From NCBI GenBank assembly GCA_003477405.1, contig QUDE01000010.1:1-64000 (forward strand): a DNA stretch of 64,000 bases. The letters run 5' to 3'. Source of the DNA: Ruminococcaceae bacterium AM07-15 (GTDB lineage Bacteria; Bacillota; Clostridia; Oscillospirales; Butyricicoccaceae). The notes beneath the pieces were generated by a model. That model worked only from the letters and a program-made list of their open reading frames with translations, was not told where the DNA came from and did not search any database. Within the stretch, counting starts at the first letter, position 1; each line of letters begins with the position of its first letter. Below, in pieces: positions 17,890 through 50,250 of the stretch. Made by a program: the position numbers and the translations under genes.

Positions 17890-17932
17890 TATATAAAAAG
17901 ACCTGGCCATGTGGCCAGGTCTTTTTATATAT
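17890..17932. terminator. Bidirectional terminator
   Basis: A long perfect stem, AAAAAGACCTGGCCA/TGGCCAGGTCTTTTT extended by ATAT pairs, lies between the converging Nudix and PTPS-like genes. Confidence 0.92.
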
Positions 17933-17946
17933 AGAACAGGAGGAAG

Positions 17947-24061: not shown

Positions 24062-24273
24062 GCCCCTTTTGCGCTGGCGGCGCCGGATCCATTTTAACCC
24101 ACAAAGTAACGAAACGGGACCGCGTATTTCGCTGCGGATTGCAGGCCTCCCGCCCTCTTCGGAGAGTCGGAAGTTGGAAGCGCTGAAACAGTGAAGAGCG
24201 GACCCACCTGCAGAAAGCGCAGGTTACTACGGGTCCGGTGTCGCCAGGGCGAAAGGGGCTTTTATTATTTTTT
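24062..24273 (+). ncRNA. Structured RNA closed by a 29-bp helix (6S-like layout, family unknown)
   Basis: Positions 24062-24090 pair with 24231-24259 in a continuous 29-bp helix with a single G-G mismatch. The helix is followed at once by a T-rich run (24260-24273) that would end a plus-strand transcript. Inside the 140-nt bubble are a hairpin ACCTGC/GCAGGT (24206-24224) on the 3' side, a CCGC/GCGG hairpin (about 24120-24136), and a GTAAC/GTTAC pairing that extends the rod. A long closing stem, an internal bubble and a small 3'-side hairpin are the layout of 6S RNA, but I cannot match its sequence, and no clear promoter is seen before 24062. SRP RNA, RNase P RNA and tmRNA signatures are absent. 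It may also act as the 3' end of the converging permease gene. Confidence 0.6.
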
Positions 24274-26795: not shown

Positions 26796-26910
26796 GTCCG
26801 GTGCCCGGACTGGCATACTGACCCGCGTCCATTGAGCGTATGATCCCTTCGGCTGCCGAAAAACTCATTTGGTTAAAGAGGAACTATTTGACCTACCCTT
26901 ATCAATTTGT

Positions 26911-27071
26911 AAAAACCGGCGACCTGTGCGTCGGTTTTTACACCTCTCAAGGGGCCAGTGTGCGCCGAAGGCGTGCATGCAGCCCCTTGCAAAAACTCGA
27001 AAAAGTGGCTTTCGCCACTTTTTCGACACGCTTTCCCCGGAGGGATTTGTATCCTTCCGGGGCTTTTTTAT
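26911..27071 (+). ncRNA. Three-hairpin RNA element with terminator, copy 1
   Basis: The element has (i) an 11-bp stem AAAAACCGGCG/CGTCGGTTTTT with loop ACCTGTG (26911-26939); (ii) a stem CAAGGGGC/GCCCCTTG (26948-26989) enclosing an inner hairpin with GCGCC-GAA-GGCGT; (iii) a 13-bp hairpin with TTTC loop (26997-27026); and (iv) an intrinsic terminator (27035-27071). A second copy at 47697-47849 shares loops and single-stranded parts but differs in stems by compensating changes. It fills the 423-base gap between lysC and rlmB. I do not recognise the family. The terminator suggests a stand-alone small RNA or an attenuated leader of rlmB, which also has its own promoter at 27123. Confidence 0.75.
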
Positions 27072-47593: not shown

Positions 47594-47696
47594 GAATCCC
47601 GCAAAAAGCAGTGTGGGAAAACCGGACTGGTTCAGATTGTGGAAAACTTTCGTGTGAGGGATATGTTTGCTCTACCACGAATCAATGAATCAATTC

Positions 47697-47849
47697 GCAA
47701 AAAGCTGCGACCTGTGCGCAGCTTTTTGCACCTATCAAGGGGCCAGTGTGCGCCAAAGGCGTGCATGCAGCCCCTTGCAAAAACTCAAAAAAGTGGCTTT
47801 GCCACTTTTTTGACACGCTCAGGCAGCACGGGAAACCGGGCTGCCTTTT
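47697..47849 (+). ncRNA. Three-hairpin RNA element with terminator, copy 2
   Basis: This copy has a 13-bp stem GCAAAAAGCTGCG/CGCAGCTTTTTGC around the same ACCTGTG loop (47697-47729), the stem CAAGGGGC/GCCCCTTG (47736-47777) with inner GCGCC-AAA-GGCGT, a 13-bp hairpin with TTT loop (47785-47813), and a terminator AGGCAGC/GCTGCCT plus T5 (about 47820-47849). Compared with copy 1, the first stem and one pair of the third (G-C to A-T) change on both strands so pairing is kept. It fills the 278-base gap between hup and rqcP, which lie close together in related genomes. The element ends 23 bases before the rqcP start codon. Confidence 0.75.
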
Positions 47850-49728: not shown

Positions 49729-49776
49729 TCCCCCAAAAGCGCGGCCCCAGCGGTTGCGCTTTCTTTTTGTTTGGGG

Positions 49777-50220
49777 TATAATAACCGCGAAGCGGTTATT
49801 ATACCGGATTTTCACGGCCGTTTTCTCGTCCCGCAAGCGGGACAACCGAAAACACGGCCAATATACCATGTCGCTTCGCTTCATGGTATAAAACCGCAAA
49901 GCGGTTATTATACCGGATTTTCACGGCCGTTTTCTCGTCCCGCAAGCGGGACAACCGAAAACACGGCCAATATACCATGTCGCTTCGCTTCATGGTATAA
50001 AACCGCAAAGCGGTTATTATACCGGATTTTCACGGCCGTTTTCTCGTCCCGCAAGCGGGACAACCGAAAACACGGCCAATATACCATGTCGCTTCGCTTC
50101 ATGGTATAAAACCGCAAAGCGGTTATTATACCGGATTTTCACGGCCGTTTTCTCGTCCCGCAAGCGGGACAACCGAAAACCTGGCCAATATACCATGTCG
50201 CTTCCGCTTCATGGTATAAT
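49777..50220. repeat. Four tandem copies of a 109-bp unit made of hairpins
   Basis: CCGC of the AACCGC-aaa-GCGGTT palindrome recurs at 49785, 49894, 50003 and 50112, exactly 109 bp apart. Each unit holds three inverted repeats: the ACCGC/GCGGT palindrome flanked by TATAAT-like arms, a compound stem CGTTTTC...GTCCCGC-aa-GCGGGAC...GAAAAC, and TATACCATG/CATGGTATA. The first palindrome differs by one base (gaa loop) and the fourth unit has an extra C near its end. Copies are otherwise almost identical. The open frames across it are by-products of the repeat. It occupies most of the 705-base gap between yabR and the fumarase gene. Confidence 0.9.
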
Positions 50221-50250
50221 AGCCCATGAGCCCCCAAAGGGCAAAAAAGG

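What the first reader, a model, noticed from the sequence alone, without database searches (positions are those of the whole stretch)
26911..27071. Undescribed two-copy RNA element with compensatory stem changes (copy at lysC/rlmB)
Seen: this 160-base element and the one at 47697-47849 share loop ACCTGTG, the CAAGGGGC/GCCCCTTG stem and the sequence between. Their first stems differ (AAAAACCGGCG/CGTCGGTTTTT versus GCAAAAAGCTGCG/CGCAGCTTTTTGC) and the third stem has a G-C to A-T swap, each time with both strands changed. That is direct evidence of selection on RNA folding, with the loop as the likely binding site. Each copy ends in its own terminator. I know no family with this layout. It could be a small RNA titrating a protein or ribosome factor.
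Basis: partly seen in the sequence, partly recalled or inferred. Interest (0 to 1): 0.8.

Follow-up and report, generated by a model that had tools for sequence, protein, structure and literature searches.

The report
Mobile hairpin element inserted in terminators
The two look-alike hairpin elements are copies of a small transposable element that jumps into the stop signals of bacterial genes, usually doubling the signal, and carries an unusually well conserved RNA-like fold with no match in the RNA family library.

Summary
The sequence observation holds: two ~185-bp elements share a fold, and their stems differ by paired changes. "Two-copy RNA gene" is wrong. A close relative (record title Intestinimonas butyriciproducens An565) carries at least 54 copies. 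Of 30 copies tested there, 21 sit between two copies of a terminator-like stem-loop, 9 of them exact. The "own terminator" of each window copy is therefore the presumed insertion target. One identical 213-bp element lies at two places with different perfect hairpin duplications, 33 and 31 bp, strong evidence of mobility. An IS1182-family element has matching ends and a perfect 30-bp terminator duplication, so this is most likely a MITE of IS1182-type elements. The inner two-hairpin core is found in 57 of 394 sampled genomes of the order, with strong covariation. Its wobbles are mostly G·U, rarely A·C, so one particular single strand, RNA or ssDNA, appears selected to fold. No Rfam family matches. 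Transcription and function are untested. Both window copies fail the duplication test; the second shows a decayed duplication and an empty orthologous site.

The parts
26849..27033 (+). Element copy 1 (about 185 bp) between lysC and rlmB, from decayed left inverted repeat to right inverted repeat
   Evidence: Alignment with copies of the relative; element length in the 21 copies with clear duplications 176-187 bp, one 150
26849..26864 (+). Left terminal inverted repeat of copy 1 (decayed form of CAGACTGTCGAAAAAC)
   Evidence: alignment; read directly
26908..26942 (+). Stem 1 hairpin of the core, loop ACCTGTG (commonest loops elsewhere ACATGTG, ACATGCG, GCATGTA)
   Evidence: Fold; covariation; loops counted
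26948..26989 (+). Stem 2 with nested stem 3, with conserved wobble pairs
26997..27026 (+). Hairpin 3, next to the right inverted repeat; reads as an intrinsic terminator on the minus strand
27035..27062 (+). Host terminator stem-loop with T-run, the presumed insertion target of copy 1 (no clear second copy upstream)
   Evidence: duplication test negative for this copy
47608..47631 (+). Decayed upstream duplicate of the terminator stem-loop of copy 2
   Evidence: Seen by eye; score 18, below the 99% null level of 24; related genome G002 has one hairpin and no element here
47633..47821 (+). Element copy 2 (about 189 bp) between an HU-type gene and an RqcP-like S4-type gene
47697..47729 (+). Stem 1 hairpin of copy 2
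47736..47777 (+). Stem 2 with nested stem 3 of copy 2
47785..47813 (+). Hairpin 3 of copy 2, minus-strand terminator-like
47822..47845 (+). Downstream copy of the host terminator stem-loop (presumed target) of copy 2
17890..17935 (+). Site without the element: single bidirectional terminator where the relative G001 carries a copy (locus L037)

Best explanation
Each element is a copy of a non-autonomous transposable element (MITE) of IS1182-type insertion sequences, carrying a structured core of two hairpins. Likely working: an IS1182-type transposase, supplied in trans, binds the CAGNCTGTCRAARA-type ends and joins them to the two feet of an intrinsic-terminator stem-loop; repair then leaves a full copy of the stem-loop on each side. 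The neighbouring gene keeps a terminator, so insertion is nearly harmless and copies pile up at gene 3' ends. Shown: dispersed copies, ends, stem-loop duplications, sites without the element, matching IS1182 ends at terminators, covariation, and a wobble asymmetry favouring one strand. Inferred: that IS1182 transposase is the mover, the cut positions, harmlessness, and that the folded strand acts as RNA. My working guess for the core is that it is transcribed in + orientation and bound by the transposase or a host RNA-binding protein, so selection for spread keeps the fold.
For: Copies: 49 in G001 (only 49 candidates scored) plus 5 further. Duplications: 21 of 30 testable G001 copies score 31 or more; the maximum of 1024 mismatched flank pairs is 29; 32 of 96 copies from 24 other genomes, in 11 of these genomes. 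Of the duplicated stem-loops, 20 of 21 and 30 of 32 have a T-run after the right copy or an A-run before the left one. Mobility: identical 213-bp bodies in L128 and L129 with different perfect duplications. Sites without the element: hup/rqcP in G002; window 17890-17935 against G001 L037. Partner: L105, an IS1182 transposase (NF033551, 403.5 bits, cut-off 270) with a 30/30-bp terminator duplication; of the 14 loci found with its protein, 7 including L105 have a matching end that abuts a stem-loop; in G006, the one genome where both ends were seen, MITE and IS share GTCAAAGAACC. Fold: covariation 0.598 vs 0.159, 0.824 vs 0.234; G·U vs A·C cells 118:2, 181:13, 145:14. Placement: 0 of 90 copies outside G001 with both neighbours called lie between divergent genes.
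Against: Neither window copy passes the duplication test, nor do 9 of 30 G001 copies and 64 of 96 others. G001 lacks a detectable IS1182 transposase, and a scan for its end (14-mer, 1 mismatch) led to no parent IS, although 9 of 21 duplications there are exact and so look recent. Model R1 finds no core in 30 transposase loci. Seven of the 14 loci, including all five at 31-39% identity, show no such end, and only 1 of 10 loci with a long transposase ORF has a duplication. The G001 copy L037 shows no upstream hairpin. Of 40 copies from the order-wide search only 3 have a true duplication, so many cores may be fixed or moved otherwise. One intended empty site (G006 against L129) turned out to be a partly deleted element. 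No sigma-70-type promoter was found at the window copies.
Confidence: 0.78

Rival explanations
1. It is primarily a host regulatory RNA (small RNA or 3' element) family spread through the order. Mobility is secondary: the RNA was captured between IS1182 ends in some lineages.
For: Core found in 57 of 394 sampled order genomes; strong covariation and G·U asymmetry; copies without inverted repeats at shared places, e.g. antisense between rpmJ and rpsM in four genomes; only 3 of 40 copies from the order-wide search with a duplication.
Against: Ten or more matches in 9 of 33 positive family genomes, at varied places; no sigma-70-type promoter at the window copies; many copies with target duplications.
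Confidence: 0.25
2. The paired changes are not selection on a fold. Palindromes are kept matched by template switching during replication, so the 'covariation' is mutational.
For: All stems are long palindromes, the kind of DNA where such correction occurs (recalled, no call).
Against: Correction of double-stranded palindromes should be strand-symmetric. Instead G·U outnumbers A·C 118:2, 181:13 and 145:14; leaving out the sites where G·U dominates, 8:2, 42:13 and 58:11 (41:11 if one more such site is left out) (derived from the per-site lists). The ends of the hairpin-1 loop also swap together (A..G or G..A). Rows are related, so these cells are not independent events.
Confidence: 0.08
3. The fold acts as single-stranded DNA (top strand) during transposition, not as RNA.
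For: The same asymmetry would arise; mobile elements with folded single-strand sites exist (IS200/IS605, integron attC; recalled).
Against: The matched partner is a DDE transposase, a type expected to work on double-stranded DNA (recalled); target duplications fit staggered double-strand joining.
Confidence: 0.15
4. The mover is not IS1182 but an unrecognised transposase with similar ends.
For: No IS1182 transposase found in G001; 19 of 67 genomes without PF05598 still have R1 matches; 7 of 14 loci lack a matching end.
Against: Seven of those 14 loci have the same kind of end directly beside a stem-loop, one with a complete 30-bp duplication, and in G006 the MITE and IS ends share an unusual variant.
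Confidence: 0.15

Closest known systems
IS1272 / TnSha1 (IS1182 family, staphylococci)
   Same: IS1182-family transposition aimed at stem-loops, often transcription terminators, with no primary sequence consensus (PMC4923244 passages; PMC5678879 abstract, passages and part 1 of 2 of the Discussion).
   Different: IS1272 deletes or replaces the stem-loop and makes no target duplication. Here the whole stem-loop is duplicated, which PMC5678879 draws only as a possible pathway. The element here carries no transposase and has a conserved core.
BOX, RUP, ERIC and similar structured bacterial repeats
   Same: Short, multi-copy, intergenic, non-coding, with stable folds; some moved in trans (recalled; PMC3049150 and PMC2229807 seen in search listings only).
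   Different: Different hosts and sequences (recalled). I saw no mention of whole-terminator duplication or IS1182-type ends for them, but did not read those papers.
Group IIC introns
   Same: Insert at intrinsic terminators (recalled).
   Different: They are ribozymes of several hundred nucleotides or more, normally with a reverse transcriptase and no target duplication (recalled). No intron match in Rfam at either copy.
Candidate structured RNAs of human microbiomes (PMC8040213)
   Same: A catalogue of 3161 predicted motifs including 250 palindromic ones; it may contain this core unnamed (passages).
   Different: The words transpos-, Faecalibacterium and Oscillospir- do not occur in its main text. 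Its supplementary tables were not read.

Membership tests
MITE (non-autonomous insertion sequence) | Short, no transposase gene, many dispersed copies | tested here: met
   150-237 bp between duplications, mostly 176-187 in G001 and 201-225 elsewhere; at least 54 copies in G001
MITE (non-autonomous insertion sequence) | Terminal inverted repeats | tested here: met
   Left CAGACTGTCGAAAAA..., right ...TTTTTCGACACGCTC; imperfect
MITE (non-autonomous insertion sequence) | Target-site duplication | tested here: met
   21 of 30 G001 copies and 32 of 96 others. Not met by the two window copies, 0 of 2
MITE (non-autonomous insertion sequence) | Autonomous relative in the same genome | tested here: inconclusive
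   None in G001; a transposase fragment with matching end in G006; the window's genome is not held
IS1182-derived element | Ends shared with an IS1182-family element | tested here: met
   L105 (NF033551) and six further loci of the 14; the other seven have no such end
IS1182-derived element | Mobilised by IS1182 transposase | not testable with these tools
   Needs a transposition assay
Known Rfam family | Score at or above gathering threshold | tested here: not met
   for the window; 20 divergent loci (only hit above threshold was skipping-rope about 290 nt from the core in L221)
Structured non-coding RNA | Covarying base pairs beyond controls | tested here: met
   0 of 500 shuffles reach the observed values; slid controls far lower. 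The alignments were fitted to the model and rows are related
Structured non-coding RNA | Transcribed | not testable with these tools
   No RNA-seq; no promoter-like site found at either window copy
REP/BIME moved by RAYT | RAYT (Y1-type) transposase nearby or in genome | not tested
Group IIC intron | Group II ribozyme domains | tested here: not met
   No group II intron match; element only about 185 bp

The most novel reading that the evidence does not exclude
The core is a new class of mobile-element RNA. A + strand transcript with an obligatory fold (loop A-CAUGY-G or G-CAUGU-A in most copies outside G001, stem with conserved U·G pairs) takes part in transposition, for example by bringing the transposase to terminator stem-loops as they are transcribed, so that insertion is coupled to transcription termination.
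Probability: 0.12. Interest if true: 0.92.

Novelty: new variant of a known kind. Interest (0 to 1): 0.72.

Why it matters
It would add an order-wide family of structured mobile elements that has no match in Rfam. It also gives comparative evidence for transposition that duplicates a whole terminator stem-loop, a route that the IS1272 paper draws only as a model. It offers a clean test case for why a non-coding transposon keeps a fold over long evolutionary distances, and it warns that covariation can come from a mobile element.

Tried and rejected
Two-copy sRNA gene: rejected by copy number. Known Rfam family: no match. Parent IS inside G001: PF05598 and the L105 protein gave nothing. Of nine end-like places in G001 away from listed cores, seven were element variants (five of them with a stem-loop duplication) and two chance; ends with more than one mismatch would be missed. 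Core inside IS1182 loci: 0 of 30 with R1. Viral contigs: two scans with patterns from the window copies, no hits. Of the 17 pattern hits in genome contigs, eight lie in An565; the other nine (L003, L005-L011, L015) show no element around the pattern and were dropped as chance. L058, a short partial match, was left out of the counts. My first gene-context call was misled by long antisense ORFs: it put lysC and rlmB on the wrong strand. It was replaced by a codon model and an amino-acid model; both are home-made and approximate. Clean empty site for L129 in G006: it proved to be a partly deleted copy. The L038 region in G002 gave repeated partial matches and no usable junction. Two of the five duplications flagged are a tandem element array (L228) and a repeated flank (L241) and were not counted. 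Notebook entries that the calls do not bear out, corrected here: '22-23 of 32' duplications (one search shows 21 of 32: 21 of 30 G001, 0 of 2 window), and '6/6 IS copies' (one search shows 7 of 14 loci). On re-checking I also narrowed the claim of shared end variants to the one genome where both were seen (G006).

Full report
Observation. Both fold into three hairpins followed by a terminator, at -90.8 and -87.0 kcal/mol, z -10.4 and -9.2. The flanking genes are aspartate kinase and rlmB for copy 1 (over the curated cut-offs), and an HU-type gene and an S4-type, Hsp15-like gene for copy 2 (both below the cut-offs; RqcP-like is recalled). No Rfam family reaches its threshold at either copy.

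It is not a two-copy element. A pattern from the inner hairpin hit eight places in one genome, record title Intestinimonas butyriciproducens An565. Nine other hits were chance. This genome, handle G001, is a close relative of the window: 8 kb around the first copy is 92.6% identical. A covariance model of 33 copies (R1) has 49 matches there, with 49 candidates scored, and five more variants were found later, so at least 54. In the window the model finds the two copies and only weak further matches.

Ends and target. Aligning the G001 copies with flanks shows an element of about 185 bp with left end CAGACTGTCGAAAAA and right end TTTTTCGACACGCTC, an imperfect inverted repeat. The terminator downstream belongs to the host. 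In 21 of 30 testable G001 copies a stem-loop of 22-37 bp is present on both sides, with scores of 31 or more; the highest of 1024 mismatched flank pairs scored 29. One G001 copy had too short a flank. Nine of the 21 duplications are exact; 17 have a T-run after the right copy, 16 an A-run before the left copy, 20 at least one of these. Both window copies fail this test. Copy 2 shows a decayed upstream hairpin by eye, and the related genome G002 has a single hairpin and no element there, while G001 keeps only a remnant. Conversely, the window has a single terminator near 17890-17935 where G001 carries copy L037. That copy lacks an upstream hairpin, which counts against a universal duplication rule.

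Wider family. R1 matches 33 of 87 genomes in the GTDB family of G001 at E 0.01 or better, with ten or more matches in 9 of the 33. A second model from 61 divergent cores (R2) matches 57 of 394 genomes sampled from the order at E 1e-4 or better, with only ten candidates scored per genome, so copy numbers are lower bounds. Some of these genomes supplied the model. E-values of these short-calibrated models are rough. Of 96 testable copies from 24 family genomes other than G001, 32 in 11 genomes have a hairpin duplication (score at least 30 and at least 5 bp; null 99% level 26, maximum 51 in 3665 pairs), 13 of them exact. Some are the same site in two genomes. Of 40 copies from the order-wide search, 3 have one. 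G006 copy L128 and G007 copy L129 have identical 213-bp bodies (0 mismatches) inside different perfect duplications of 33 and 31 bp. A search with L129 found 29 further matches in G006 covering at least 189 bp of the element at 84-100% identity. This is the strongest sign of recent movement.

The likely mover. IS1182-type domains (PF05598) occur in 20 of 87 family genomes. Of these, 14 also have R1 matches, against 19 of the other 67 (counted; phylogeny not controlled). Locus L105 is a complete element: a 492-aa transposase (NF033551 IS1182, 403.5 bits, cut-off 270; PF13751, PF05598 and PF01609), ends CAGTCTGTCGAAAAAGTCC and CAGCCTGTCGAGAAACCC, and a 30/30-bp terminator duplication. Of ten loci with a long ORF in the transposase region examined, only L105 showed a duplication. 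The L105 protein finds 14 loci in 11 of 87 genomes. In seven of them (L205, which is L105, and L206, L207, L209, L212, L213, L217; genomes G048, G012, G008, G022, G014, G006, G074) a matching end directly abuts a stem-loop; in the other seven, including all five at 31-39% identity, no such end was found. In G006, where both were seen, MITE and IS ends share GTCAAAGAACC, while most other MITE left ends listed and the IS left ends in other genomes read GTCGAAAAAG. Against this, G001 has no detectable IS1182 transposase, and none of its extra end sequences leads to one. R1 finds the core in none of 30 transposase loci.

Literature. For IS1272 (IS1182 family), PMC4923244 (passages) reports insertion at terminator hairpins with partial deletion and no duplication. 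PMC5678879 (abstract, passages and part 1 of 2 of the Discussion) describes stem-loop replacement and draws whole stem-loop duplication as a possible alternative pathway. The elements here appear to follow that alternative. My paper searches listed no paper whose title or abstract describes this element. That is a statement about those listings in an open-licence library only. PMC8040213 may list the core among its 3161 predictions; only passages of its main text were seen.

The fold. In 61 divergent cores, 96.3% of cells pair, 27 of 28 pairs have two-sided changes, and the covariation score is 0.598 (shuffles 0.159, slid at most 0.114). In 49 rows from the order-wide loci the score is 0.824 (shuffles 0.234, slid at most 0.209); five of these rows come from one array and five are weak secondary matches under 40 bits. 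The alignments were fitted to the model structure and rows are related, so the controls matter more than the absolute numbers. Wobble cells on the + strand are mostly G·U: 118 to 2, 181 to 13 and 145 to 14 A·C in the three alignments. Leaving out sites where G·U dominates, the ratios are 8:2, 42:13 and 58:11, or 41:11 if one further such site is dropped (derived from the per-site lists). A palindrome kept matched at the DNA level should show both equally, so one single strand appears selected to fold. The seven-base loop of hairpin 1 is A....G or G....A in 140 of 143 rows, a swap that suggests a non-standard pair. This fits RNA, though folded single-stranded DNA is not excluded.

Placement. 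With home-made gene calls, of 30 G001 and window copies with both neighbours called (of 33), 13 lie between convergent genes, 16 in tandem and 1 between divergent but distant genes. Of 90 copies elsewhere with both neighbours called (of 137), none lies between divergent genes. Outside G001 the right neighbour is on the opposite strand in 103 of 116 called cases; in G001 and the window the split is 20 to 13. In the window, hairpin 3 reads as an intrinsic terminator on the minus strand, which may explain tolerance for that orientation in this lineage; this is inference. Some copies lack the inverted repeats and sit at shared places, such as between rpmJ and rpsM in four genomes (gene names recalled from the protein sequences). 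They may be old, fixed insertions or the original host element.

Verdict. What is shown: a mobile, terminator-sitting element that often duplicates the stem-loop, with a strongly conserved fold and no Rfam match. What is likely: IS1182 as mover. What is open: transcription, and why the fold is kept. I rate it a new variant of a known kind (MITE / structured repeat) rather than a new regulatory RNA class.

Noticed in passing
window 24063-24259 (+): 6S RNA (RF00013, 53.6 bits, E 7.5e-8), the only Rfam hit above threshold in the window.
   Followed up: no
L052, L056, L057, L062 (G010, G023, G008, G025): A copy of the core lies antisense between rpmJ and rpsM in four genomes, without inverted-repeat ends (gene names recalled from the protein sequences). 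How downstream essential genes are expressed past it is unclear.
   Followed up: partly
L228 (G232 C1:22400-24200): Five cores in a head-to-tail array, about 160-179 bp apart.
   Followed up: no
L221 982-1078 (-): A skipping-rope RNA (RF02924, 49.6 bits, cut-off 36.7) about 290 nt upstream of an element core on the same strand.
   Followed up: no
L260 (G001 C1 near 206618) and L267 (G001 C13 near 110746): Element variants in which the inner part of the core is replaced by other sequence while the ends and a terminator duplication remain.
   Followed up: no
L048 (G002 C17 near 12206): G002 has its own element version with loop GGACATGCGCC and a decayed terminator duplication; R1 missed it, R2 scores 35.8 bits.
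   Followed up: partly
G006, eight places matching L129 102-276: A second dispersed repeat of about 175 bp, matching on both strands, in the flank of an element copy.
   Followed up: no
window 49770-50221: Part of G001 locus L014 aligns three times in overlapping registers here, suggesting a tandem repeat.
   Followed up: no
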